This document shows, piece by piece, positions 2,702-57,982 of a stretch of DNA of 64,000 bases (within the stretch, counting starts at the first letter, position 1; every line of letters starts with the position of its first letter). Origin of the DNA: a sulfur-oxidizing endosymbiont of Gigantopelta aegis (GTDB lineage Bacteria; Pseudomonadota; Gammaproteobacteria; GRL18); the NCBI RefSeq assembly GCF_016097415.1, contig NZ_JAEHGE010000001.1, positions 4,046,610 through 4,110,609 of the forward strand, read 5' to 3'. Under the pieces are notes generated by a model. The model saw only the letters and a program-made list of their open reading frames with translations. It ran no database searches and had not been told where the DNA came from. The position numbers and the translations under genes were made by a program.

Positions 2702-4891
2702 GTGCTAACTGAAAAACTAAAAAAAACCATACAAGATGCTTATTCCAAAGTTCTGGAAAGCAAAGGAATAAAAGCCCGTTATGGACAACGGCTAATGATT
2801 GCGGATATTGCTCGAACCTTGGGCAATATTGATCAAGAGAATATTGATCAAGAGAATACCGAACAAACTAATATTTGCACGCTTGAAGCTGGGACAGGAA
2901 CAGGCAAAACCATTGCTTATTTGGTTTCTGCCCTACCCATTGCCAAAGAAAACAAAAAGAAACTCATCATTTCTACCGCTACGATTGCCTTACAGGAACA
3001 AATACTGCTCAAAGATTTACCTGATATCCATCGCCATAGCGGTTTAAATTTTTCCTTTACCCTTGCCAAGGGACGCAAACGTTATGTTTGCCATTATAAA
3101 TTAGAAAACTTCATCGCCCATCGGGATCAGCCTGAACTGGGGCTGGATATGCCCTCCAATGAAAGCCTGCTAAATAATAAAGATGATATGCAACTCTATG
3201 AAGCCTTACATCAGGCATGGAAGAAAAAACAATGGGATGGCGAAATCGACAGTTGGGATGATTTTATTGGTCAGAGTAGTTGGCTACCCCTAACATCCGA
3301 CCAACACCAATGCAGTGGCAAGCGTTGCTCCTATTATAATGAATGTGTCTATTTCAAAGCCCGTGAATCCGTGTTTAAGGTCGATTGCATTATTGCCAAT
3401 CATGATCTAGTGCTCAGTGACTTGAATATGGGTGGCGGCTATATTTTGCCACCGCCCAATGAATGCATTTACATTTTTGATGAGGGTCATCATTTACCGC
3501 TTAAAGCGATTAATCATTTCAGCTATTCATTTCATATCAATAGTAGTCTTAAATGGTTGGAGCAAGTCAACGCAACACTGAATAACTTTGCCTCATTGGC
3601 TAAGCCGCCAGCACAAATTCAACAAATCATTACAAATTTTCCTGAACTGGCCAAAGAGATAAGCACTGAGCTTAACCATCTGGATAGCATCACACGGCAA
3701 TTCAAATTTCCTGAAAACCGATTCTCTGGGTCAAGCTCCTCAGCGCAAGCAGGCAATAATCAAAAGGAAATCTTACGATTTGAGTTCGGGCAAATTCCCG
3801 ATATATTGAAAGAGCAATGTCAGCAGCTTTTAAAACAGTTTGATAAACTTTCTTCACAATTAATGCATATCAATAAAGTATTAAAGGACAGTCTGGAAGG
3901 CGAAATAACCGGTCTCAAAAGTGAAATAGCAGAACAATGGATGCCCGCACTAGCACCTATGGAGGGACGCGCCACAGCGGCCATGGATTTGTTCGAGTTT
4001 TTCACTAAGGCCGACAAACAAGGTATGCCCCCCAATGCTCGATGGTTACAAAAAAATGAAGCATCCTCTAACACCCGTAACGAACTGCTGGGCATAGAAT
4101 TATCTTGTAGCCCTATTCTTGCTGCCAATACGCTGGAACAAATCCTCTGGTCACAATGTTATGGCGCGGTAGTCACCAGTGCGACAATAGCAGCACTGGG
4201 GAATTTTGATCGGTATATCTTAAACTCCGGTGTACCGGGTTTCTTTAATATCTTACCCAGCCCTTTTAATTATCAGGAAAATGTCGAATTTATTGTCCCT
4301 GCAATGCGTAGCGATGCGACTCAATATCAGGCACATACCGATGAGGTGGTTGAATTATTAACTCAGATCATCGATCCCAATAAGGGCACCTTGGTCTTAT
4401 TTGCCTCCAAAAAACAAATGAGTGATGTGGAATACGAGTTATTGCGCAGTGATGACATCTGGAAAAAATTACTACTTACCCAGGGACAAAGAAATAAACA
4501 AGTGATTATCAATGATCACAAGAAACAAATTGACAAGGGTCATGGTAGCGTTATTCTTGGCCTCAATAGCTTTGCCGAAGGTATCGACCTCCCCGGGGAA
4601 TATTGCGAACATGTTATCATAGCCAAACTCCCCTTTTCAGTTCCTAACAATCCCGTTGATGCTTCTTTAACCGAGTGGATTGAATCTCAAGGCCGCAATG
4701 CCTTTATGGAAATTGCTGTGCCTGATGCATCCATAAAACTAGTACAAGCCTGTGGTCGTTTGATCAGAAAAGAAACCGACTCAGGAAAAATCACCCTTTT
4801 GGACAAACGCGTAATCACAAAATTTTACGGTAAGAAAATTCTTAGTGCCCTGCCTCCTTATAAAATGCGCTTAAACGAAGTGATTGATTAA
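2702..4891 (+). CDS. dinG: DinG-family ATP-dependent DNA helicase
   Basis: The 729-residue product is close to the usual DinG size. It is an XPD-like 5'-3' superfamily 2 helicase expected to unwind R-loops and D-loops during repair and replication. Walker A reads EAGTGTGKT (about residue 62) and the DEAH-like box is FDEGHHLP. Four cysteines lie between them (RYVCHY, QCSGKRC, NECVYF), in the arrangement that binds the 4Fe-4S cluster. Later motifs include VVTSATIAALG, GLNSFAEGIDLPGE and the motif VI-like QACGRLIR. The start is GTG at 2702; no strong Shine-Dalgarno is visible, and a tandem IDQEN repeat near residue 43 is a local oddity. The frame is intact despite long A runs. It stands alone, with the IS66-like relic and copy 2 upstream and the MITE plus monooxygenase pseudogene downstream. 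Confidence 0.93.
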   Translation: MLTEKLKKTIQDAYSKVLESKGIKARYGQRLMIADIARTLGNIDQENIDQENTEQTNICTLEAGTGTGKTIAYLVSALPIAKENKKKLIISTATIALQEQILLKDLPDIHRHSGLNFSFTLAKGRKRYVCHYKLENFIAHRDQPELGLDMPSNESLLNNKDDMQLYEALHQAWKKKQWDGEIDSWDDFIGQSSWLPLTSDQHQCSGKRCSYYNECVYFKARESVFKVDCIIANHDLVLSDLNMGGGYILPPPNECIYIFDEGHHLPLKAINHFSYSFHINSSLKWLEQVNATLNNFASLAKPPAQIQQIITNFPELAKEISTELNHLDSITRQFKFPENRFSGSSSSAQAGNNQKEILRFEFGQIPDILKEQCQQLLKQFDKLSSQLMHINKVLKDSLEGEITGLKSEIAEQWMPALAPMEGRATAAMDLFEFFTKADKQGMPPNARWLQKNEASSNTRNELLGIELSCSPILAANTLEQILWSQCYGAVVTSATIAALGNFDRYILNSGVPGFFNILPSPFNYQENVEFIVPAMRSDATQYQAHTDEVVELLTQIIDPNKGTLVLFASKKQMSDVEYELLRSDDIWKKLLLTQGQRNKQVIINDHKKQIDKGHGSVILGLNSFAEGIDLPGEYCEHVIIAKLPFSVPNNPVDASLTEWIESQGRNAFMEIAVPDASIKLVQACGRLIRKETDSGKITLLDKRVITKFYGKKILSALPPYKMRLNEVID

Positions 4892-4989
4892 ATGTATGGT
4901 AATGAAGTGTAAATATAATATGCGCTTGAAGTAAATCGCTCATTAAATTATCATCGAATAGACTATTTGCTCTTATTAGCAGTAATTAT

Positions 4990-5165
4990 CCTAAAATAAT
5001 CAGTTGAATCGTAGCGAGAGCGACTTAGGTTCTGAAGATTAAGGGTTTTACAGGTTATTTTGGCTTTATTCGTAGTCACCCTACGGGTGAAGTCAAAATG
5101 TTCTGGAAAATCCTTAAGATTCAGTACATAAGGCGGTCGCAGTAGGTTCAACTGATTTTTTTAGG
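4990..5165. repeat. Palindromic MITE, copy 1 (176 bp)
   Basis: The element begins CCTAAAATAATCAGTTGAA and ends TTCAACTGATTTTTTTAGG. The outer 19 bp are near-perfect inverted repeats, and weaker complementarity continues inward to a central hairpin CACCCTACGGGTGA, so the whole element can fold on itself. It is flanked by ATTAT on both sides (4985-4989 and 5166-5170), which looks like a 5-bp target duplication. It has no coding potential. A near-identical copy lies at 57808-57982. It sits immediately upstream of the monooxygenase start codon and would alter that promoter. Confidence 0.85.
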
Positions 5166-5191
5166 ATTATACCCCAAGGATAAAATATGCC

Positions 5192-6712
5192 TAATGTGGC
5201 TACACTTAACCGGACACACAACTTAAAATAACTAAAAGATAAAAAGTGTGACCTAAAATGAATGATCAAACAAAAAAAACCGAATAAAAGCTATACATCA
5301 GAATTTAAAGAATCAGCTGTCAAATTAGCTAATGAGACGGATCAACCCGTTTCTCAGACTGCCAGGGAGCTAGGTGTTAATGTAAATACTCTACATACCT
5401 GGATCAGTAAATATTCCAAACCGGTGAAGACGGTAGCCAATAGAAGTGATGAACACATTTATGATGAAGTAAAACGTCTGAAAAAAGAATTGGCAAAAGT
5501 GATTCAGGAGCGTGATTTATTAAAAAGGCCACAGCGTACTTTGCAAGGGAAACTTTGTGAAGTACGCATGGATAACTGATCAGGCTAAAGATTACCCGGT
5601 AACGATTCTGTGCCGTTTTATGGATGTTTCCCGTAGTTGCTATTATGATTGGGTTAGCTCTCCTAAAACGGATAGAGAGAAAGAAAATGAAGCGCTTACT
5701 GAGCAGCTAAAAAACTGTTTGAAGACAGTCGCAAGACTTATGGAACCCGTCGTCTTAAAAGAAAACTGGCTGAAAAAGGCGTTCATATAAGCCGCCGGAG
5801 AATTGGTCGATTAATGAAAAAAGCCGGTTTGTTTTGTAAAACGAAGAGACGCTTTAAAGCGACGACTAATTCCAAGCATAATAAGCGTATATCTCCAAAT
5901 TTACTGGAAAGAGAGTTTGCTGTCTCTCAACCTGATCGCTACTATGTGGGTGATATTACCTATATTGCCACCAAGGAAGGCTGGTTATATTTAGCGGTTG
6001 TCATTGACTTATTCTCTAGGCAAATTGTTGGCTGGTCGATGGATGAGCGAATGAAAGCCAAGCTAGTCAATGATGCTTTACTGATGGCCATATGGAAGCG
6101 TAAACCAATGGATGGATTGCTTTGGCATACTGACCGAGGTAGCCAATATGCCTCTGATAGTCATAGAAAAATATTGTCGGATCATAACATAATTCAGTCT
6201 ATGAGCCGCAAAGGAAATTGCTGGGACAATGCTGTATCAGAGAGCTTCTTTCATAGTTTGAAAACTGAATTGACGCACCATTGTCGATTCAAAACCAGAG
6301 TAGAAGCAAAGCAGGCAATATTTGAATATATTGAGGTATTTTATAATCGGGAGCGACTTCATTCGGCTAATGATTATTTGTCACCAGTCGATTATGAAAT
6401 ACAGCAGGAAATAGCTTAAATCGATTGATTGAAGAGGGGTAAAAGGCGACATAAATGCCGCCCATTACCGTTGACGGCCATCGGCTCCTCAGCCTGTGCC
6501 GTGAAGATATTGTAACAGGATCATTACCGTTGTGAAAATACCTTGGGTGAATGGAACGGCTCTATCGTTCCAGAGGGCAAAGCCCTTTCTCTTCATCTGT
6601 TTAAAGTTAACATGAGAAACTAAAATGATAGGAAATACAAAATGACAAAAATCACTTGAAACAGCCAAAAAAAAATATTTAGAAAACTGTCCGGAAAAGT
6701 GTTGACACATCA
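5192..6712 (+). mobile_element. IS-A copy 3 (IS3 family), full length
   Basis: This 1521-bp element is complete at both ends and flanked by GCC (5189-5191 and 6713-6715). It inserted directly after the start codon of the monooxygenase gene. Its left end reads CTACACTT where most copies read CTATACTT, which weakens the -10 box of the proposed circle-junction promoter. Confidence 0.95.
5258..6419 (+). pseudogene. IS-A transposase (orfA/orfB), frameshifted
   Basis: The orfA start is displaced by an extra A (A8 in place of A7 after the ATG), but an internal ATG at 5262 reopens the frame to 5579. OrfB reads from GTG 5557 to a premature stop at 5790 and resumes at 5814-6419. The DDE motifs [15 protein letters not shown] and SESFF are present in the second piece. 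The break comes from four As in the run near 5755, where the only open copy (45455) has five. Confidence 0.8.
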
Positions 6713-8304
6713 GCCTATTGAAAGTCCATCAGAAACAGCACAGGACAGCAATATACCAAAGGATGTACAAAAAGACTCTCAGCATTTTGAAACAGTAATC
6801 ATCGGCACTGGATTTTCAGGTTTACTCGCGGCTATCCGTTTACAAAAAAGCATTTCAATGACTTTGTCTTATTAGAACGAAGTTCTGATATCGGTGGAAC
6901 CTGGCGGGACAACTCCTATCCGGGTGCCGAAGTAGACATTCCAACGAGCTTATATTCTATTTCCTTTGTGCCTTATAAATTCAAAAAACATATTCACCAC
7001 AGAGTGAATTGCTTGAATATACCAACTATATCATCAATAAATTTGATATTAGAAAGCACACAAAAACAAACCAAACCGTCACAAAACTTACATATAATGA
7101 AGATACTTTTTTATGGCATGTAGAGGTTGGGTCAGGAGAACACTATACCGCTCGGTTTATTATTGATACCAGTGGTGTGTTAGCCAATCCACATATTCCT
7201 GAAATTAACGGGGCTGATACTTTTCAAGGCGCTAAATTCCACACTGCGCGATGGGATCACAACATACCTTATGAAGGAAAACGTGTTGCAGTGATTGGGT
7301 CTGGATGTTCCGCAGCTCAGGTCGTTCCAGCCATTGCCAGTAAGGTTGAGCAATTAACATTATTTATGGGCAAGGCTCAATGGATCATTCCACGTTCAGA
7401 CCGCAACTATAGTTCCACCGAGCGTTTCATTCGTAATCTTCCTGGAATACGGCATATTATTCGTTTTGCAATCTTTAGTTATCATGAAATCAGATTTCTT
7501 GCCTTTCGTCGCTATCCAATCACGACAAATCTCAGTAAATTCATTAAAAGTATTTATAGAAAGGTACTCAAGAAGAATCTTGAAAAATACATTGATGATG
7601 ACAAGATACGCCAACATATGATGCCTGATTATGAATTGGGCAGCAGGCGAGTCATTCCGACAAATATTTATCTCCCGGCCCTTTCCCGAGACAATGTGAC
7701 TGTTAATATCAGTGGCATAGAAGCGATTACACCAACAGGCATTAAAACCAAAGACGGTAAAGAAATACCTTTAGACATCATCGTCTATGCCACAGGCTTT
7801 TATGCTTATTCAAATATGAAAAAAGCACTCTCATTTCAGGTCTATGGTCTCGATGGTCGAAACCTCAATAGTGAATGGGAAACAGATCTGGTCTCTTATA
7901 AGGGCATCATGGTTTCAGGCTATCCTAATTATTTTAAAGTAAATGGACCTAATACCGGTACCGGTCATAGTTCACAATTATGCTATATGGAAGCAATGAC
8001 CCATTATACCGTTAAGGCAATTGAGGCAATAAAAAGCGATACCAGCATCAAAGCCATCGACGTTAAACAGAACCTTCAGGATGAGTACGTTAAAAAAATG
8101 AGACAAACGATGCAATTGACCGTTTGGCAAAATAGTACTTGTACGGCTTTTTATAGAAAAAATATGACAGGTGATGTCACCAGCCTATCACCTGAATCTG
8201 TGGTCAACTTTATCTTTACCCGTAAATGGTTTCACTTAAGTGATTATAATTTATTAAAGTGAAATAAAACCATGTAATAAAACCTTAAAATATGCCAATT
8301 TATC

Positions 8305-9034: not shown

Positions 9035-10541
9035 TAATGTGGCTATACTTAACCGGACACACAACTTAAAATAACTAAAAGATAAAAAGTGTGACCTAAA
9101 ATGAATGATCAAACAAAAAAACCGAATAAAAGCTATACATCAGAATTTAAAGAATCAGCTGTCAAATTAGCTACAACCTGTTTCTCAGACTGCCAGGGAG
9201 CTAGGTGTTAATGTAAATACTCTACATACCTGGATCAGTAAATATTCCAAACCGGTGAAGACGGTAGCCAATAGAAGTGATGAACACATTTATGATGAAG
9301 TAAAACGTCTGAAAAAAAGAATTGGCAAAAGTGATTCAGGAGCGTGATTTATTAAAAAGGCCACAGCGTACTTTGCAAGGGAAACTTTGTGAAGTACGCA
9401 TGGATAACTGATCAGGCTAAAGATTACCCGGTAACGATTCTGTGCCGTTTTATGGATGTTTCCCGTAGTTGCTATTATGATTGGGTTAGCTCTCCTAAAA
9501 CGGATAGAGAGAAAGAAAATGAAGCGCTTACTGAGCAGCTAAAAAACTGTTTGAAGACAGTCGCAAGACTTATGGAACCCGTCGTCTTAAAAGAAAACTG
9601 GCTGAAAAAGGCGTTCATATAAGCCGCCGGAGAATTGGTCGATTAATGAAAAAAGCCGGTTTGTTTTGTAAAACGAAGAGACGCTTTAAAGCGACGACTA
9701 ATTCCAAGCATAATAAGCGTATATCTCCAAATTTACTGGAAAGAGAGTTTACTGTCTCTCAACCTGATCGCTACTATGTGGGTGATATTACCTATATTGC
9801 CACCAAGGAAGGCTGGTTATATTTAGCGGTTGTCATTGACTTATTCTCTAGGCAAATTGTTGGCTGGTCGATGGATGAGCGAATGAAAGCCAAGCTAGTC
9901 AATGATGCTTTACTGATGGCCATATGGAAGCGTAAACCAATGGATGGATTGCTTTGGCATACTGACCGAGGTAGCCAATATGCCTCTGATAGTCATAGAA
10001 AAATATTGTCGGATCATAACATAATTCAGTCTATGAGCCGCAAAGGAAATTGCTGGGACAATGCTGTATCAGAGAGCTTCTTTCATAGTTTGAAAACTGA
10101 ATTGACGCACCATTGTCGATTCAAAACCAGAGTAGAAGCAAAGCAGGCAATATTTGAATATATTGAGGTATTTTATAATCGGGAGCGACTTCATTCGGCT
10201 AATGATTATTTGTCACCAGTCGATTATGAAATACAGCAGGAAATAGCTTAAATCGATTGATTGAAGAGGGGTAAAAGGCGACATAAATGCCGCCCATTAC
10301 CGTTGACGGCCATCGGCTCCTCAGCCTGTGCCGTGAAGATATTGTAACAGGATCATTACCGTTGTGAAAATACCTTGGGTGAATGGAACGGCTCTATCGT
10401 TCCAGAGGGCAAAGCCCTTTCTCTTCATCTGTTTAAAGTTAACATGAGAAACTAAAATGATAGGAAATACAAAATGACAAAAATCACTTGAAACAGCCAA
10501 AAAATATTTAGAAAACTGTCCGGAAAAGTGTTGACACATCA
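9035..10541 (+). mobile_element. IS-A copy 4 (IS3 family), near full length
   Basis: The 1507-bp element is bounded by TAATGTGG and CACATCA and flanked by ACA on both sides (9032-9034 and 10542-10544). Removing it rejoins the membrane-protein gene in frame. It lacks about 12 bp of orfA after ATTAGCTA and has an extra-A run near 9315. Confidence 0.94.
9101..10251 (+). pseudogene. IS-A transposase (orfA/orfB), frameshifted
   Basis: OrfA is broken by the small deletion near 9172 and by an A insertion near 9317. OrfB is open at 9389-9622 and again at 9646-10251, with the same interrupting A4 run as copies 3 and 12. The catalytic core ([29 protein letters not shown]) is unaltered. Confidence 0.8.
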
Positions 10542-10754: not shown

Positions 10755-12026
10755 TGATGTGTCAACACTTTTCCGGACAGTTTTCTAAATATTTTTTGGC
10801 TGTTTCAAGTGATTTTTGTCATTTTGTATTTCCTATCATTTTAGTTTCTCATGTTAACTTTAAACAGATGAAGAGAAAGGGCTTTGCCCTCTGGAACGAT
10901 AGAGCCGTTCCATTCACCCAAGGTATTTTCACAACGGTAATGATCCTGTTACAATATCTTCACGGCACAGGCTGAGGAGCCGATGGCCGTCAACGGTAAT
11001 GGGCGGCATTTATGTCGCATCGACAATGGTGCGTCAATTCAGTTTTCAAACTATGAAAGAAGCTCTCTGATACAGCATTGTCCCAGCAATTTCCTTTGCG
11101 GCTCATAGACTGAATTATGTTATGATCCGACAATATTTTTCTATGACTATCAGAGGCATATTGGCTACCTCGGTCAGTATGCCAAAGCAATCCATCCATT
11201 GGTTTACGCTTCCATATGGCCATCAGTAAAGCATCATTGACTAGCTTGGCTTTCATTCGCTCATCCATCGACCAGCCAACAATTTGCCTAGAGAATAAGT
11301 CAATGACAACCGCTAAATATAACCAGCCTTCCTTGGTGGCAATATAGGTAATATCACCCACATAGTAGCGATCAGGTTGAGAGACAGTAAACTCTCTTTC
11401 CAGTAAATTTGGAGATATACGCTTATTATGCTTGGAATTAGTCGTCGCTTTAAAGCGTCTCTTCGTTTTACAAAACAAACCGGCTTTTTTCATTAATCGA
11501 CCAATTCTCCGGCGGCTTATATGAACGCCTTTTTCAGCCAGTTTTCTTTTTAAGACGACGGGTTCCATAAGTCTTGCGACTGTCTTCAAACAGTTTTTTA
11601 GCTGCTCAGTAAGCGCTTCATTTTCTTTCTCTCTATCCGTTTTAGGAGAGCTAACCCAATCATAATAGCAACTACGGAAACATCCATAAAACGGCACAGA
11701 ATCGTTACCGGGTAATCTTTAGCCTGATCAGTTATCCATGCGTACTTCACAAAGTTTCCCTTGCAAAGTACGCTGTGGCCTTTTTAATAAATCACGCTCC
11801 TGAATCACTTTTGCCAATTCTTTTTTCAGACGTTTTACTTCATCATAAATGTGTTCATCACTTCTATTGGCTACCGTCTTCACCGGTTTGGAATATTTAC
11901 TGATCCAGGTATGTAGAGTATTTACATTAACACCTAGCTCCCTGGCAGTCTGAGAAACGGGTTGATCCGTCTCATTAGCTAATTTTTGACAGCTGATTCT
12001 TTAAATTCTGATGTATAGCCACATTA
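10755..12026 (-). mobile_element. IS-A copy 5 (IS3 family), two internal deletions
   Basis: Both termini are present, with a 4-bp duplication ACTG (10751-10754 and 12027-12030). At 1272 bp it has lost two segments. About 165 bp of the orfB C-terminus is missing at 11020 (GTCGC joined directly to ATCGACAATGG). About 88 bp spanning the orfA start and most of the left terminal repeat is missing at 12012-12018, where orfA sequence GATGTATAGC runs straight into the left-end GTATAGCCACATTA. The second deletion is flanked by the short repeat GTATAGC. Because the duplication is intact, the losses came after insertion, and the element cannot move by itself. Confidence 0.9.
11021..12015 (-). pseudogene. 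IS-A transposase, C-terminally and N-terminally deleted
   Basis: OrfB is open from 11697 down to about 11021, with A5 at the critical run so that the frame continues through [18 protein letters not shown]. It ends abnormally after THHC because the C-terminal 45 or so residues are deleted. All three catalytic motifs remain. OrfA has no start codon. Apart from copy 11 this is the only copy whose OrfB is open from MPFYG through the DDE core. Confidence 0.75.
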
Positions 12027-17031: not shown

Positions 17032-18543
<1,512 letters not shown>

Positions 18544-19620: not shown

Positions 19621-19908
19621 GAAACAGTCCTGAGCAAATCCAGAATGGACTTGAGCTGATTCAGGTTCGTATCAGAATTGATTTCCAAACTGAAACCATT
19701 GGTATGGCTTACTTTAATTGCATTGCTTGTGGGGGAATTGGCCAGTAAATTAATGGGAATGAGTTGATTGTTGGTGTTGACCTGTTTTGATGAGCTAACA
19801 TAACCCAACTTCTTTCGATAATAGCTAAAAATATGAGAGGGTATCTTATGTTGTTGACAATAAACTGCCTGGCTTAAGTTACTGGCTTGGCAGGCCTCTA
19901 TGTGTTGC

Positions 19909-21415
<1,507 letters not shown>

Positions 21416-22879: not shown

Positions 22880-24376
<1,497 letters not shown>

Positions 24377-26326: not shown

Positions 26327-27850
26327 TGATGTGTCAACACTTTTCCGGACAGTTTTCTAAATATTTTTTGGCTGTTTCAAGTGATTTTTGTCATTTTGTA
26401 TTTCCTATCATTTTAGTTTCTCATGTTAACTTTAAACAGATGAAGAGAAAGGGCTTTGCCCTCTGGAACGATAGAGCCGTTCCATTCACCCAAGGTATTT
26501 TCACAACGGTAATGATCCTGTTACAATATCTTCACGGCACAGGCTGAGGAGCCGATGGCCGTCAACGGTAATGGGCGGCATTTATGTCGCCTTTTACCCC
26601 TCTTCAATCAATCGATTTAAGCTATTTCCTGCTGTATTTCATAATCGACTGGTGACAAATAATCATTAGCCGAATGAAGTCGCTCCCGATTATAAAATAC
26701 CTCAATATATTCAAATATTGCCTGCTTTGCTTCTACTCTGGTTTTGAATCGACAATGGTGCGTCAATTCAGTTTTCAAACTATGAAAGAAGCTCTCTGAT
26801 ACAGCATTGTCCCAGCAATTTCCTTTGCGGCTCATAGACTGAATTATGTTATGATCCGACAATATTTTTCTATGACTATCAGAGGCATATTGGCTACCTC
26901 GGTCAGTATGCCAAAGCAATCCATCCATTGGTTTACGCTTCCATATGGCCATCAGTAAAGCATCATTGTAAAGCATCATTGACTAGCTTGGCTTTCATTC
27001 GCTCATCCATCGACCAGCCAACAATTTGCCTAGAGAATAAGTCAATGACAACCGCTAAATATAACCAGCCTTCCTTGGTGGCAATATAGGTAATATCACC
27101 CACATAGTAGCGATCAGGTTGAGAGACAGTAAACTCTCTTTCCAGTAAATTTGGAGATATACGCTTATTATGCTTGGAATTAGTCGTCGCTTTAAAGCGT
27201 CTCTTCGTTTTACAAAACAAACCGGCTTTTTTCATTAATCGACCAATTCTCCGGCGGCTTATATGAACGCCTTTTCAGCCAGTTTTCTTTAAGACGACGG
27301 GTTCCATAAGTCTTGCGACTGTCTTCAAACAGTTTTTTAGCTGCTCAGTAAGCGCTTCATTTTCTTTCTCTATCCGTTTTAGGAGAGCTAACCCAATCAT
27401 AATAGCAACTACGGAAACATCCATAAACGGCACAGAATCGTTACCGGGTAATCTTTAGCCTGATCAGTTATCCATGCGTACTTCACAAAGTTTCCCTTGC
27501 AAAGTACGCTGTGGCCTTTTTAATAAATCACGCTCCTGAATCACTTTTGCCAATTCTTTTTTCAGACGTTTTACTTCATCATAAATGTGTTCATCACTTC
27601 TATTGGCTACCGTCTTCACCGGTTTGGAATATTTACTGATCCAGGTATGTAGAGTATTTACATTAACACCTAGCTCCCTGGCAGTCTGAGAAACGGGTTG
27701 ATCCGTCTCATTAGCTAATTTGACAGCTGATTCTTTAAATTCTGATGTATAGCTTTTATTCGGTTTTTTTGTTTGACCATTCATTTTAGGTCACACTTTT
27801 TATCTTTTAGTTATTTTAAGTTGTGTGTCCGGTTAAGTATAGCCACATTA
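26327..27850 (-). mobile_element. IS-A copy 9 (IS3 family), inside the methyltransferase gene
   Basis: CAA is duplicated at 26324-26326 and 27851-27853; excision restores V-I-I-N-D-L-H-R-H. At 1524 bp it is the longest copy, because AAAGCATCATTG is tandemly repeated near 26958-26983, inside orfB. Confidence 0.95.
26617..27784 (-). pseudogene. IS-A transposase, orfA intact, orfB broken by a short duplication
   Basis: OrfA (27464-27784, 106 aa) is complete, except that residue 3 is Gly (MNGQTKK) where other copies have Asp. OrfB is split into 26963-27235 and 26617-26979 by the tandem duplication in the ALLMAIW coding region, and its N-terminal third carries further contractions. Catalytic motifs remain. 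Confidence 0.8.
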
Positions 27851-38607: not shown

Positions 38608-40119
<1,512 letters not shown>

Positions 40120-40122
<3 letters not shown>

Positions 40123-44730: not shown

Positions 44731-45090
44731 ATGAAAAAAATAGTATTTTTAAGCAGTTTGTGTTCCTTATTCCTAGCAATGAATTTACTTGCCGAAACAC
44801 CCGATAAGAGTACTTATTCATTAGGGATTTCCCCTACCTGCCACCGCAAATTCTAAAACAACTACACACACCACTCGTGACTGAAATAAATGAATCAATG
44901 TCAAAAAAAATCGTAATGACTAGCACTTCAAGTTATGGCCGATTTATTGAAAACCTAAAAAACGAATCTTATGACATAATCCTAGTACAACCCTTTGACT
45001 ATATATGGGCACACGATCAATATAATTACCAACCACTAGCAAAATATAGAACTCCCTTATCAGCTCTATTTATGGTGCCAATAGATAGTC
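44731..45090 (+). pseudogene. PhnD-like periplasmic binding protein, frameshifted and truncated by IS-A
   Basis: ATG 44731 begins a signal peptide MKKIVFLSSLCSLFLAMNLL (cleavage near LAETP). After one missing T near 44834 the mature protein reads FPYLPPQILKQLHTPLVTEI, MTSTSSYGRFIENLKNESYD and IILVQPFDYIWAHDQ. That is the first lobe of a PhnD/phosphonate-type binding protein, often fused to sensory proteins in gammaproteobacteria. IS-A copy 11 cuts it after VPIDS, and the rest is absent from the other side. Confidence 0.72.
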
Positions 45091-45099
45091 TAATGTGGC

Positions 45100-45105
45100 T
45101 ATACT
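45100..45105 (+). promoter_or_regulatory. Left-end -10 box of the IS-A circle-junction promoter
   Basis: TATACT begins nine bases inside the left end. In a circular intermediate joining right and left ends with a 3-bp spacer it lies 17 bp from the right-end TTGACA and would drive orfA. Confidence 0.65.
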
Positions 45106-45156
45106 TAACCGGACACACAACTTAAAATAACTAAAAGATAAAAAGTGTGACCTAAA

Positions 45157-45477
45157 ATGAATGATCAAACAAAAAAACCGAATAAAAGCTATACATCAGA
45201 ATTTAAAGAATCAGCTGTCAAATTAGCTAATGAGACGGATCAACCCGTTTCTCAGACTGCCAGGGAGCTAGGTGTTAATGTAAATACTCTACATACCTGG
45301 ATCAGTAAATATTCCAAACCGGTGAAGACGGTAGCCAATAGAAGTGATGAACACATTTATGATGAAGTAAAACGTCTGAAAAAAGAATTGGCAAAAGTGA
45401 TTCAGGAGCGTGATTTATTAAAAAGGCCACAGCGTACTTTGCAAGGGAAACTTTGTGAAGTACGCATGGATAACTGA
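45157..45477 (+). CDS. IS-A OrfA (IS3-family helix-turn-helix protein)
   Basis: This 106-residue DNA-binding subunit has the helix-turn-helix [20 protein letters not shown] and a leucine-zipper-like [18 protein letters not shown]. OrfA binds the terminal repeats and, fused to OrfB by frameshifting, forms the OrfAB transposase in this family. The frame ends with an abnormal tail ([17 protein letters not shown]). In the -1 frame after the A5 run the sequence reads [12 protein letters not shown] and stops at a TGA that overlaps the GTG of orfB (GTGA). ATG 45157 has no strong Shine-Dalgarno. Confidence 0.88.
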
Positions 45478-46318
45478 TCAGGCTAAAGATTACCCGGTAA
45501 CGATTCTGTGCCGTTTTATGGATGTTTCCCGTAGTTGCTATTATGATTGGGTTAGCTCTCCTAAAACGGATAGAGAGAAAGAAAATGAAGCGCTTACTGA
45601 GCAGCTAAAAAACTGTTTGAAGACAGTCGCAAGACTTATGGAACCCGTCGTCTTAAAAAGAAAACTGGCTGAAAAAGGCGTTCATATAAGCCGCCGGAGA
45701 ATTGGTCGATTAATGAAAAAAGCCGGTTTGTTTTGTAAAACGAAGAGACGCTTTAAAGCGACGACTAATTCCAAGCATAATAAGCGTATATCTCCAAATT
45801 TACTGGAAAGAGAGTTTACTGTCTCTCAACCTGATCGCTACTATGTGGGTGATATTACCTATATTGCCACCAAGGAAGGCTGGTTATATTTAGCGGTTGT
45901 CATTGACTTATTCTCTAGGCAAATTGTTGGCTGGTCGATGGATGAGCGAATGAAAGCCAAGCTAGTCAATGATGCTTTACTGATGGCCATATGGAAGCGT
46001 AAACCAATGGATGGATTGCTTTGGCATACTGACCGAGGTAGCCAATATGCCTCTGATAGTCATAGAAAAATATTGTCGGATCATAACATAATTCAGTCTA
46101 TGAGCCGCAAAGGAAATTGCTGGGACAATGCTGTATCAGAGAGCTTCTTTCATAGTTTGAAAACTGAATTGACGCACCATTGTCGATTCAAAACCAGAGT
46201 AGAAGCAAAGCAGGCAATATTTGAATATATTGAGGTATTTTATAATCGGGAGCGACTTCATTCGGCTAATGATTATTTGTCACCAGTCGATTATGAAATA
46301 CAGCAGGAAATAGCTTAA
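45455..46318 (+). CDS. IS-A OrfB (IS3-family DDE transposase)
   Basis: From GTG 45455 the 287-residue product has [18 protein letters not shown] near the N-terminus and the rve integrase core with Asp in VGDITYI, Asp in [11 protein letters not shown] and Glu in [13 protein letters not shown]. It closes [20 protein letters not shown]. Between EQLK and KRKLAEKG the protein reads [15 protein letters not shown]. The +1 frame of the same DNA encodes [14 protein letters not shown], the conserved IS3 sequence, so a 15-residue stretch appears to be out of frame between two compensating indels. Catalytic competence is therefore uncertain. Confidence 0.88.
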
Positions 46319-46609
46319 ATCGATTGATTGAAGAGGGGTAAAAGGCGACATAAATGCCGCCCATTACCGTTGACGGCCATCGGCTCCTCAGCCTGTGCCG
46401 TGAAGATATTGTAACAGGATCATTACCGTTGTGAAAATACCTTGGGTGAATGGAACGGCTCTATCGTTCCAGAGGGCAAAAGCCCTTTCTCTTCATCTGT
46501 TTAAAGTTAACATGAGAAACTAAAATGATAGGAAATACAAAATGACAAAAATCACTTGAAACAGCCAAAAAATATTTAGAAAACTGTCCGGAAAAGTGTT
46601 GACACATCA
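46319..46609 (+). other. Long non-coding tail of IS-A with hairpins
   Basis: The 290 bp between the orfB stop and the right end occur in nearly every copy. They include GGAACGGCTCTATCGTTCC, and an AGAGGGC/GCCCT stem followed by TTTCTCTT that looks like a terminator, plus complementary stretches around GGCGACATAAATGCCGCC. On the opposite strand a frame of about 73 codons starts with an ATG inside the terminal repeat ([13 protein letters not shown]...). Its A/T runs vary between copies, so I do not treat it as a gene. Confidence 0.6.
46599..46604 (+). promoter_or_regulatory. Right-end outward -35 box of IS-A
   Basis: A perfect TTGACA ends five bases before the right tip and points outward. It is present in most copies; copies 7 and 8 have lost a base within or next to it. 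It forms the -35 of the proposed circle-junction promoter and might also pair with chance -10 boxes in flanking DNA. Confidence 0.65.
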
Positions 46610-46747: not shown

Positions 46748-48264
46748 TAATGTGGCTATACTTAACCGGACACACAACTTAAAACAACTAAAAGATAAAA
46801 AGTGTGACCTAAAATGAATGATCAAACAAAAAAACCGAATAAAAGCTATACATCAGAATTTAAAGAATCAGCTGTCAAATTAGCTAATGAGACGGATCAA
46901 CCCGTTTCTCAGACTGCCAGGGAGCTAGGTGTTAATGTAAATACTCTACATACCTGGATCAGTAAATATTCCAAACCGGTGAAGACGGTAGCCAATAGAA
47001 GTGATGAACACATTTATGATGAAGTAAAACGTCTGAAAAAAGAATTGGCAAAAGTGATTCAGGAGCGTGATTTATTAAAAAGGCCACAGCGTACTTTGCA
47101 AGGGAAACTTTGTGAAGTACGCATGGATAACTGATCAGGCTAAAGATTACCCGGTAACGATTCTGTGCCGTTTTATGGATGTTTCCCGTAGTTGCTATTA
47201 TGATTGGGTTAGCTCTCCTAAAACGGATAGAGAGAAAGAAAATGAAGCGCTTACTGAGCAGCTAAAAAACTGTTTGAAGACAGTCGCAAGACTTATGGAA
47301 CCCGTCGTCTTAAAAGAAAACTGGCTGAAAAAGGCGTTCATATAAGCCGCCGGAGAATTGGTCGATTAATGAAAAAAGCCGGTTTGTTTTGTAAAACGAA
47401 GAGACGCTTTAAAGCGACGACTAATTCCAAGCATAATAAGCGTATATCTCCAAATTTACTGGAAAGAGAGTTTACTGTCTCTCAACCTGATCGCTACTAT
47501 GTGGGTGATATTACCTATATTGCCACCAAGGAAGGCTGGTTATATTTAGCGGTTGTCATTGACTTATTCTCTAGGCAAATTGTTGGCTGGTCGATGGATG
47601 AGCGAATGAAAGCCAAGCTAGTCAATGATGCTTTACTGATGGCCATATGGAAGCGTAAACCAATGGATGGATTGCTTTGGCATACTGACCGAGGTAGCCA
47701 ATATGCCTCTGATAGTCATAGAAAAATATTGTCGGATCATAACATAATTCAGTCTATGAGCCGCAAAGGAAATTGCTGGGACAATGCTGTATCAGAGAGC
47801 TTCTTTCATAGTTTGAAAACTGAATTGACGCACCATTGTCGATTCAAAACCAGAGTAGAAGCAAAGCAGGCAATATTTGAATATATTGAGGTATTTTATA
47901 ATCGGGAGCGACTTCATTCGCTAATGATTATTTGTCACCAGTCGATTATGAAATACAGCAGGAAATAGCTTAAATCGATTGATTGAAGAGGGGTAAAAGG
48001 CGACATAAATGCCGCCCATTACCGTTGACGGCCATCGACTCCTCAGCCTGTGCCGTGAAGATATTGTAACAGGATCATTACCGTTGTGAAAATACCTTGG
48101 GTGAATGGAACGGCTCTATCGTTCCAGAGGGCAAAGCCCTTTCTCTTCATCTGTTTAAAGTTAACATGAGAAACTAAAATGATAGGAAATACAAAATGAC
48201 AAAAATCACTTGAAACAGCCAAAAAAATATTTAGAAAACTGTCCGGAAAAGTGTTGACACATCA
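46748..48264 (+). mobile_element. IS-A copy 12 (IS3 family), full length, mismatched flanks
   Basis: The 1517-bp copy has complete ends, left flank AAT and right flank CAA. It has the same orientation as copy 11, 138 bp away. It truncates the HD-GYP gene that follows. Confidence 0.93.
46814..47973 (+). pseudogene. IS-A transposase, orfA intact, orfB broken twice
   Basis: OrfA (46814-47134) is complete. OrfB reads from GTG 47112 to a stop at 47345 (A4 run) and again from 47369. Near 47920 one G is lost (CATTCGCTAAT for CATTCGGCTAAT), which changes the last residues from [10 protein letters not shown] to LMIICHQS. Catalytic D, D and E are present. Confidence 0.8.
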
Positions 48265-52284: not shown

Positions 52285-52821
52285 TGATGTGTCAACACTT
52301 TTCCGGACAGTTTTATTTCATAATCGACTGGTGACAAATAATCATTAGCCGAATGAAGTCGCTCCCGATTATAAAATACCTCAATATATTCAAATATTGC
52401 CTGCTTTGCTTCTACTCTGGTTTTGAATCGACAATGGTGCGTCAATTCAGTTTTCAAACTATGAAAGAAGCTCTCTGATACAGCATTGTCCCAGCAATTT
52501 CCTTTGCGGCTCATAGACTGAATTATGTTATGATCCGACAATATTTTTCTATGACTATCAGAGGCATATTGGCTACCTCGGTCAGTATGCCAAAGCAATC
52601 CATCCATTGGTTTACGCTTCCATATGGCCATCAGTAAAGCATCATTGACTAGCTTGGCTTTCATTCGCTCATCCATCGACCAGCCAACAATTTGCCTAGA
52701 GAATAAGTCAATGACAACCGCTAAATATAACCAGCCTTCCTTGGTGGCAATATAGGTAATATCACCCACATAGTAGCGATCAGGTTGAGAGACAGTAAAC
52801 TCTCTTTCCAGTAACACATTA
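52285..52821 (-). mobile_element. IS-A copy 13 (IS3 family), deleted remnant
   Basis: Only 537 bp remain. The right terminal repeat (TGATGTGTCAACAC...GACAG) joins internal orfB sequence at 52313 (TTTTATTTCATAATCG), removing the whole tail. At the other end orfB sequence CCAGTAA joins the last seven bases of the left end (CACATTA), removing orfA. Flanks GTA and TTA do not match. Confidence 0.88.
52322..52817 (-). pseudogene. IS-A OrfB core fragment
   Basis: [20 protein letters not shown] through SPVDYEI is in frame, then runs into the shortened right end. The DDE motifs are present, but there is no N-terminus or OrfA. Non-functional. Confidence 0.78.
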
Positions 52822-54110: not shown

Positions 54111-55264
54111 TAATGTGGCTATACTTAACCGGACACACAACTTAAAATAACTAAAAGATAAAAAGTGTGACCTAAAATGAATGATCAAACAAAAAAACCG
54201 AATAAAAGCTATACATCAGAATTTAAAGAATCAGCTGTCAAATTAGCTAATGAGACGGATCAACCCGTTTCTCAGACTGCCAGGGAGCTAGGTGTTAATG
54301 TAAATACTCTACATACCTGGATCAGTAAATATTCCAAACCGGTGAAGACGGTAGCCAATAGAAGTGATGAACACATTTATGATGAAGTAAAACGTCTGAA
54401 AAAAGAATTGGCAAAAGTGATTCAGGAGCGTGATTTATTAAAAAGGCCACAGCGTACTTTGCAAGGGAAACTTTGTGAAGTACGCATGGATAACTGATCA
54501 GGCTAAAGATTACCCGGTAACGATTCTGTGCCGTTTTATGGATGTTTCCCGTAGTTGCTATTATGATTGGGTTAGCTCTCCTAAAACGGATAGAGAGAAA
54601 GAAAATGAAGCGCTTACTGAGCAGCTAAAATACTATGTGGGTGATATTACCTATATTGCCACCAAGGAAGGCTGGTTATATTTAGCGGTTGTCATTGACT
54701 TATTCTCTAGGCAAATTGTTGGCTGGTCGATGGATGAGCGAATGAAAGCCAAGCTAGTCAATGATGCTTTACTGATGGCCATATGGAAGCGTAAACCAAT
54801 GGATGGATTGCTTTGGCATACTGACCGAGGTAGCCAATATGCCTCTGATAGTCATAGAAAAATATTGTCGGATCATAACATAATTCAGTCTATGAGCCGC
54901 AAAGGAAATTGCTGGGACAATGCTGTATCAGAGAGCTTCTTTCATAGTTTGAAAACTGAATTGACGCACCATTGTCGATTCAAAACCAGAGTAGAAGCAA
55001 AGCAGGCAATATTTGAATATATTGAGGTATTTTATAATCGGGAGCGACTTCATTCGGCTAATGATTATTTGTCACCAGTCGATTATGAAATACAGCAGGA
55101 AATAGCTTAAATCGATTGATTGAAGAGGGGATACCTTGGGTGAATGGAACGGCTCTATCGTTCCAGAGGGCAAAGCCCTTTCTCTTCATCTGTTTAAAGT
55201 TAACATGAGAAACTAAAATGATAGGAAATACAAAATGACAAAAATCACTTGAAACAGCCAAAAA
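54111..55264 (+). mobile_element. IS-A copy 14 (IS3 family), right end and internal parts deleted
   Basis: The left end is intact, and ATG is duplicated at 54108-54110 and 55265-55267. The last 38 bp or so, including the whole right terminal repeat, are missing: GAAACAGCCAAAAA runs straight into the duplicated ATG. About 230 bp of orfB is lost at 54630 (CAGCTAAAA joined to TACTATGTGG) and about 95 bp of the tail at 55130. The surviving duplication shows a complete element inserted first. It is immobile now. Confidence 0.9.
54177..55110 (+). pseudogene. IS-A transposase with in-frame deletion in orfB
   Basis: OrfA is intact (54177-54497). OrfB (54475-55110, 211 aa) runs [20 protein letters not shown], so the internal deletion joined the N-terminal and catalytic parts in frame and removed the region in which the other copies are frameshifted. 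D, D and E motifs are retained, but the linker domain is gone. Confidence 0.78.
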
Positions 55265-57807: not shown

Positions 57808-57982
57808 CCTAAAATAATCAGTTGAATCGTAGCGAGAGCGACTTAGGTGCTGAAGATTAAGGGGGTTACAGGTTATTTTGGCTTTATTCGTACACCCTAC
57901 GGGTGAAATCAAAATGTGCTGGAAAATCCTTAAGATTCAGTGCATAAGGCGGTCGCAGTAGGTTCAACTGATTTTTTTTAGG
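57808..57982. repeat. Palindromic MITE, copy 2 (175 bp)
   Basis: Same element and orientation as 4990-5165, with the same terminal CCTAAAATAATCAGTTGAA and central CACCCTACGGGTGA. The flanks are ATAAA and TTAAA, a degenerate duplication at best. It occupies most of the 419-bp gene-free region between the S24 gene and the lysine-rich gene; the rest of that region is AT-rich with no further feature seen. Confidence 0.85.

What the first reader, a model, noticed from the sequence alone, without database searches (positions are those of the whole stretch)
4990..5165. A 176-bp fully palindromic MITE, two copies 53 kb apart
The arms of about 85 bp are complementary end to end, with 19-bp near-perfect tips CCTAAAATAATCAGTTGAA and a central CACCCTACGGGTGA. 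Copy 1 has a clean ATTAT duplication, and copy 2 (57808-57982) is highly similar. No transposase with these ends is in the window. It may be mobilised by an unseen element, and as RNA would form a very long hairpin. It could be a regulatory or small-RNA source, and copy 1 sits in the monooxygenase promoter.
Basis: partly seen in the sequence, partly recalled or inferred. Interest (0 to 1): 0.6.

Follow-up and report, generated by a model that had tools for sequence, protein, structure and literature searches.

The report
Hairpin mini-transposon moved by IS1380-type transposase
This is a 176-base mobile DNA hairpin with no gene of its own, present about 70 times in this bacterium and in its relatives; it carries the end sequences of IS1380-type insertion sequences, so their transposase very probably moves it, and over the long term it has been held to a shape that folds well as RNA from only one strand.

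Summary
Observation confirmed. 4990-5165 is a MITE with a 5-bp ATTAT duplication; copy 2 is 57808-57982 (flanks ATAAA/TTAAA, one mismatch). It is not limited to two places: about 70 copies lie in this 4.9-Mb genome, all 66 mapped ones between genes, and two genera of the family carry it widely. Of 100 complete copies, 85 have perfect 5-bp duplications obeying NTNAN. The unseen mobiliser was found: an IS1380-like clade (about 1.69 kb, PF13701) has the same ends (identical to the MITE tip in Methylobacter-type copies) and the same duplication rule. This genome keeps only two broken IS copies. The MITE also keeps, at bp 88-100, a CACCCnnnGGGTG dyad found about 88 bp from the left end of these ISs. 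The palindrome covaries (26 of 68 pairs with double changes), and its non-Watson-Crick pairs are G.T, not A.C, on the + strand (13 to 0 positions), so + RNA folds about 31 kcal/mol better than - RNA on average, and better in all 85 distinct copies. That points to long-term constraint on a one-strand RNA fold. Transcription and function are untested. Known kind (MITE), new family; the RNA-level signature is the interesting part.

The parts
4990..5165 (+). MITE copy 1, full element; + is the strand whose RNA folds best
4985..4989 (.). 5-bp target duplication ATTAT, left
   Evidence: (L002)
5166..5170 (.). 5-bp target duplication ATTAT, right
   Evidence: (L002)
4990..5008 (+). left tip CCTAAAATAATCAGTTGAA, IS1380-like end; stop codons in all three frames within 18 nt
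5147..5165 (-). right tip CCTAAAAAAATCAGTTGAA; identical to IS ends in L152/L153
5077..5089 (+). central dyad CACCCTACGGGTG at bp 88-100, matching the CACCCnnnGGGTG dyad near the left end of the IS1380-like elements
57808..57982 (+). MITE copy 2 (175 bp), flanks ATAAA/TTAAA, not a perfect duplication
5176..5195 (+). AAGGA ribosome-binding site and ATG CCT AA start of the former FMO-like gene, cut by an IS3-family element at about 5195

Best explanation
A non-autonomous transposable element (MITE) moved in trans by the transposase of a distant IS1380-like insertion-sequence clade. SHOWN: shared terminal 16-20 bp, shared NTNAN 5-bp duplications, shared CACCCnnnGGGTG dyad about 88 bp from the left end, high copy number, intergenic placement, arms that covary across species, and a one-strand G.T bias. 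INFERRED: the transposase binds the tips, with the dyad as a second cis site or regulatory site, and inserts the element with a 5-bp stagger at WTNAW-like targets. INFERRED, less certain (about 0.5): the palindrome is kept not only because both ends must match but because the + strand, when co-transcribed from neighbouring genes, forms a long RNA hairpin that makes insertions tolerable (mRNA 3' end protection or RNase III processing, as proposed for NEMIS and ERIC). Copies then decay, partly by deletion inside the palindrome, to relics such as the four 37-bp mini-palindromes.
For: Tips: own genome 205 tip matches against 43 control. 70 centre matches, 0 control. 85 of 100 complete copies have perfect 5-bp duplications, position 2 always T and position 4 always A. 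IS1380-like elements of about 1.69 kb with CCTAnnnnnn[TG]CAGTT at both ends and duplications ATGAT, TTGAA, TTTAA, TTTAT, ATCAT, ATTAA, TTAAA, GTCAA, which obey the same rule; own-genome IS copies with TTAAA and ATAAA duplications. Transposase P0001: PF13701 68.9 bits, above cut-off; NF033539 IS1380 122.6 bits, best NCBIfam family. Dyad at offset 86-89 in 18 of 19 IS left ends and at 100 in one, and at 88 in the MITE. Its His codon is CAC in 17 of 17 and its Gly codon GGT in 16 of 17, against 38% and 29% elsewhere in the same genes, so the dyad looks constrained as nucleic acid. Covariation: 26 of 68 pairs with double changes, 98.1% paired cells, 0 of 500 shuffles as high. Strand asymmetry: G.T 606 cells, A.C 18; + RNA more stable in all 85 distinct copies. 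66 of 66 mapped copies intergenic. 37-bp relics, two of four with perfect duplications.
Against: No intact IS1380-like transposase in this genome: two broken copies only, whose ends match less well than those of IS copies elsewhere. Between bp 18 and 86 the MITE shows no detectable similarity to either IS end, so a simple internal-deletion origin is not shown. For the RNA role: mutations in individual own-genome copies show no G.T preference (WC to A.C 26 cells, WC to G.T 16); orientation towards neighbouring genes is only mildly skewed (22 ++ against 13 --); no convincing internal promoter; no Rfam family at gathering score.
Confidence: 0.85

Rival explanations
1. A plain MITE (same mobiliser) whose palindrome is only a by-product: inverted duplication of one end plus occasional template-switch correction between arms, with no RNA role.
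For: Individual recent copies mutate without regard to RNA pairing; no significant orientation bias; tips must match each other anyway for the transposase.
Against: Arm correction would turn mismatches into Watson-Crick pairs, yet 13 G.T positions and a tandem G.A mismatch (columns 49-50 with 133-134) are retained across genera while 26 other pairs change on both sides. No position is dominated by A.C (13 to 0, two-sided sign test 2.4e-4).
Confidence: 0.35
2. A host-domesticated structured small RNA or cis-regulatory RNA that happens to be spread by transposition.
For: Covariation and one-strand bias; many copies begin within about 25 bp of the stop codon of a co-directional gene.
Against: About 70 near-identical copies with free decay, IS-type tips, target duplications and truncated relics are the pattern of a mobile element; low-score Rfam hits are unrelated microRNA hairpins.
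Confidence: 0.1
3. A MITE moved by some other DDE transposase with a 5-bp stagger; resemblance to IS1380-like ends is convergence.
For: No intact IS1380-like gene in this genome; interior not related to the IS.
Against: Identity over 20 bp at the tip, the same NTNAN duplications and the same dyad at the same offset in one IS clade. None of the unpaired tips inspected belonged to another autonomous element.
Confidence: 0.05

Closest known systems
ERIC/IRU (enterobacteria, 127 bp) and NEMIS/Correia (Neisseria) MITEs (PMC2229807)
   Same: Small intergenic multi-copy palindromic elements with target duplications whose transcripts form long stem-loops; ERIC acts on mRNA stability in an orientation-dependent way, NEMIS is proposed to be cut by RNase III.
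   Different: Those have TA-type termini; this has CCTA...CAGTTGAA tips, 5-bp NTNAN duplications and an IS1380-like partner. No expression effect has been tested here.
IS1380-family insertion sequences (published: IS1247 1672 bp, IR 16/13, DR 5; ISPsp9 1718 bp, IR 21/18, DR 5; PMC3281130, PMC4133298)
   Same: Length of the autonomous partner (mostly 1685-1710 bp), imperfect terminal repeats, 5-bp duplications, PF13701 transposase.
   Different: The MITE has no gene; the partner transposase scores below NCBI's IS1380 cut-off (122.6 of 180 bits), so it is a distant clade.
TIMEs (Tn3-derived miniature elements, 262 bp; PMC4133298)
   Same: Gene-less elements moved by a transposase in trans, 5-6 bp duplications, long RNA stem-loops of -70 to -115 kcal/mol.
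   Different: Tn3-type 38-bp ends, usually single copy; this one has IS1380-like ends and about 70 copies.

Membership tests
MITE (non-autonomous miniature inverted-repeat element) | Short (under 300 bp), no transposase gene | tested here: met
   176 bp, no ORF
MITE (non-autonomous miniature inverted-repeat element) | Terminal inverted repeats and target-site duplications | tested here: met
   19-bp tips; 85 of 100 complete copies with perfect 5-bp duplications
MITE (non-autonomous miniature inverted-repeat element) | Multiple dispersed copies in a genome | tested here: met
   70 centre matches in G000
MITE (non-autonomous miniature inverted-repeat element) | Ends match an autonomous element that could mobilise it | tested here: met
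   IS1380-like elements; L152/L153 identical to the right tip over 20 bp
MITE (non-autonomous miniature inverted-repeat element) | Transposition in trans demonstrated | not testable with these tools
   needs a transposition assay
IS1380 family (for the autonomous partner) | DDE transposase of PF13701 / NF033539 | tested here: inconclusive
   PF13701 above cut-off (68.9 against 34.7 bits); NF033539 is the best NCBIfam hit but below its cut-off (122.6 against 180)
IS1380 family (for the autonomous partner) | Imperfect IRs of 13-21 bp, 4-5 bp DRs, length about 1.6-1.7 kb (PMC3281130, PMC4133298) | tested here: met
ERIC/NEMIS-like RNA-active MITE | Transcribed as a hairpin that alters mRNA stability | not testable with these tools
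   only fold, covariation and strand bias could be tested
Known Rfam RNA family | Match at gathering score | tested here: not met
   none in the window; only low-score microRNA hairpin matches

The most novel reading that the evidence does not exclude
A bacterial MITE lineage whose transpositional success depends on an RNA made from one defined strand: the element is a mobile structured RNA as well as mobile DNA, keeping G-U wobbles, a tandem G.A motif and compensatory pairs across at least three genera, and keeping an internal dyad of its parent IS that works as a nucleic-acid signal.
Probability: 0.4. Interest if true: 0.7.

Novelty: new member of a known kind. Interest (0 to 1): 0.42.

Why it matters
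It assigns an apparently undescribed, high-copy, family-wide bacterial MITE to a mobiliser (an IS1380-like clade, distant relatives of ISEcp1) and points to a conserved internal dyad in those ISs that may be an unrecognised cis signal. The strand-specific wobble pattern offers a simple sequence test for whether palindromic MITEs are selected as RNA or only as DNA, a question that also applies to ERIC- and NEMIS-like elements.

Tried and rejected
Plasmid and phage collections: no match. Unpaired tips as ends of a larger element: they proved to be MITEs with one mutated end, MITEs interrupted by other ISs (ISL3-like with IS21-like nested in L058), truncated copies or 37-bp relics. Tip-bearing loci in G018/G013/G014/G005: ordinary host genes beside them, no transposase. 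Fold-back duplication of one IS end as the origin: the palindrome axis (about bp 88.5) does not coincide with the dyad axis (bp 94), and the interior is not similar to the IS, so not claimed. Orientation bias towards genes: mild, not significant. Rfam low-score hits: microRNA-type hairpins, meaningless here.

Full report
WHAT IS THERE. Window 4990-5165 holds a 176-bp element that starts CCTAAAATAATCAGTTGAA and ends TTCAACTGATTTTTTTAGG, with ATTAT on both sides. Copy 2, 57808-57982, is about 95% identical and has ATAAA on the left and TTAAA on the right. The tip is found four times in the window, against 0.07 expected in shuffles. As DNA the palindrome is strict only over the outer 24 nt, but the + strand as RNA folds end to end at -87.7 kcal/mol, z -14.

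HOW MANY. The genome that holds the window (4.91 Mb, 11 contigs) has 205 tip matches at up to 3 mismatches, against 43 for a control pattern, and 70 matches to the central 26 bp, with none for the control. The best 40 scored copies are 98-100% identical to copy 1; the 66 distinct mapped copies range from 91 to 100%. In a survey of 40 genomes including the own one, 20 have a match: the own genome, 13 of 15 others of the genus and all six of a sister genus (g3), none outside the family. Divergent copies in genus g4 of the family were found through their tips. Plasmid and phage collections had no match.

MOBILITY. Of 45 complete own-genome copies 38, and of 55 complete copies from relatives 47, have perfect 5-bp target duplications; where perfect, position 2 is always T and position 4 always A (the script breaks boundary ties in favour of a duplication, but most copies came out at 176 bp, as in the unrefined listing). 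All 66 distinct mapped copies lie between predicted genes (crude ORF caller). The left tip carries stop codons in all three frames within 18 nt.

THE MOBILISER. PF13701 found weak, broken hits in the own genome. Two of these are remnants of one insertion sequence with ends CCTAAAAACCGCAGTAG and CCTATAAAAATCAGTTA and with 5-bp duplications TTAAA and ATAAA. A related element in G009 has an uninterrupted 526-codon frame (P0001; L105, ends CCTAGTTTAATCAGTTA and CCTAAAATCATCAGTTA). P0001 matches PF13701 above its cut-off and NF033539 (IS1380) at 122.6 of 180 bits, so it is a distant IS1380-like clade. Genus-mate G002 holds about 40 matches, mostly fragments, with ends CCTAGTTTAATCAGTTGAAAATAGG and CCTAAAAAAATCAGTTAACCCTGCC. 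A scan of named genomes gave 59 loci. G002 appears to be the MAG 'Thiohalomonas sp. L138_T1' (contig numbers such as 245, 146, 241 and match positions agree), so the window comes from a relative of that organism; its own name was not established. Most full-length loci have CCTAnnnnnn[TG]CAGTT at both ends, about 1.69 kb apart, and the perfect duplications among them obey NTNAN. In Methylobacter and Methylococcaceae copies (L152, L153) the end is identical to the MITE right tip over 20 bp.

THE SHARED DYAD. All 19 IS left ends examined have CACCCnnnGGGTG or a near form, at 86-89 bp from the tip in 18 and at 100 in one; the MITE has CACCCTACGGGTG at 88, near its centre. In the IS this encodes His-Pro-X-Gly, but the His codon is CAC in 17 of 17 and the Gly codon GGT in 16 of 17, against 38% and 29% elsewhere in the same genes. 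The loci are related, so these are not independent observations, but they suggest a nucleic-acid signal. Outside tip and dyad the MITE arms do not resemble either IS end more than shuffles do.

RNA-LEVEL CONSTRAINT. An alignment of 51 copies gives a 68-pair consensus, 26 pairs of which have kept pairing through changes on both sides; 98.1% of cells pair, no shuffle of 500 reaches this, and sliding partners by one column drops it to 42-52%. Departures from Watson-Crick pairing on the + strand are G.T in 606 cells and A.C in 18, symmetric internal loops included; 13 positions are mostly G.T and none mostly A.C (sign test 2.4e-4, treating positions as independent). Hence + RNA is more stable than - RNA in all 85 distinct copies (means -86.2 and -55.0 kcal/mol own, -90.7 and -59.5 relatives). 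Gene conversion between arms would have erased the G.T pairs. Mutations in the recent own-genome copies show no such preference, so constraint appears to act on the propagating lineage, not on each resident copy. Orientation to genes is only mildly skewed (22 ++, 13 --).

DECAY. Four 37-bp palindromes consist of the two tips joined near CAGT repeats; two of them keep perfect 5-bp duplications (TTTAA, ATAAT), and 104-bp (duplication TTTAA) and 55-bp forms also exist. This is what deletion inside a palindrome would leave (inference).

CONTEXT OF COPY 1. It lies 98 bp after a helicase gene (Helicase_C_2, DinG-type by the family) and just before AAGGA...ATG CCT AA, the start of an FMO-like gene that an IS3-family element interrupts at the third codon; the frames beyond are also broken.

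LITERATURE. Published IS1380 elements have 13-21 bp ends, 4-5 bp duplications and 1.56-1.72 kb length (PMC3281130, PMC4133298). Bacterial MITEs with long RNA stems, and effects on mRNA stability, are known (PMC2229807). Five open-access papers hold both 'miniature inverted-repeat transposable' and 'IS1380'; in the passages read from three of them none described an IS1380-linked MITE, but subscription journals were not searched.

Noticed in passing
window 5195-6640, 9035-10457, 17116-18543, 19908-21334, 22880-24293, 26411-27850, 38693-40122, 45090-46525, 46748-48179; pieces at 955-2193, 11019-12019, 52314-52814, 54111-55130: One IS3-family element (about 1.45 kb, HTH_Tnp_1 + rve) is present about nine times nearly full length at 95-99% identity in this 64-kb window, plus pieces: an unusually dense local accumulation.
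   Followed up: partly
window 5187-8262: FMO-like monooxygenase gene broken by an IS3-family element at its third codon and by frameshifts further on.
   Followed up: yes
L058 3131-7314 (G000 C1:848130-852313): A MITE copy split by an ISL3-like element, which itself seems split by an IS21-like element: three nested insertions.
   Followed up: partly
G002 (apparently Thiohalomonas sp. L138_T1), many contigs: About 40 fragmented or decayed matches to the IS1380-like transposase, a large expansion in a genus-mate.
   Followed up: partly
L001 (G000 C6:27790-30967) and window 3489-6625: Contig C6 carries a 98% identical copy of the helicase-MITE-IS3 region with the same insertion site: a segmental duplication or an alternative assembly of the same locus. 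C10 likewise repeats the site at C1:3151132.
   Followed up: no
own-genome MITE copies: Substitutions against the consensus on the + strand are strongly asymmetric: G>A 50 against C>T 14.
   Followed up: no
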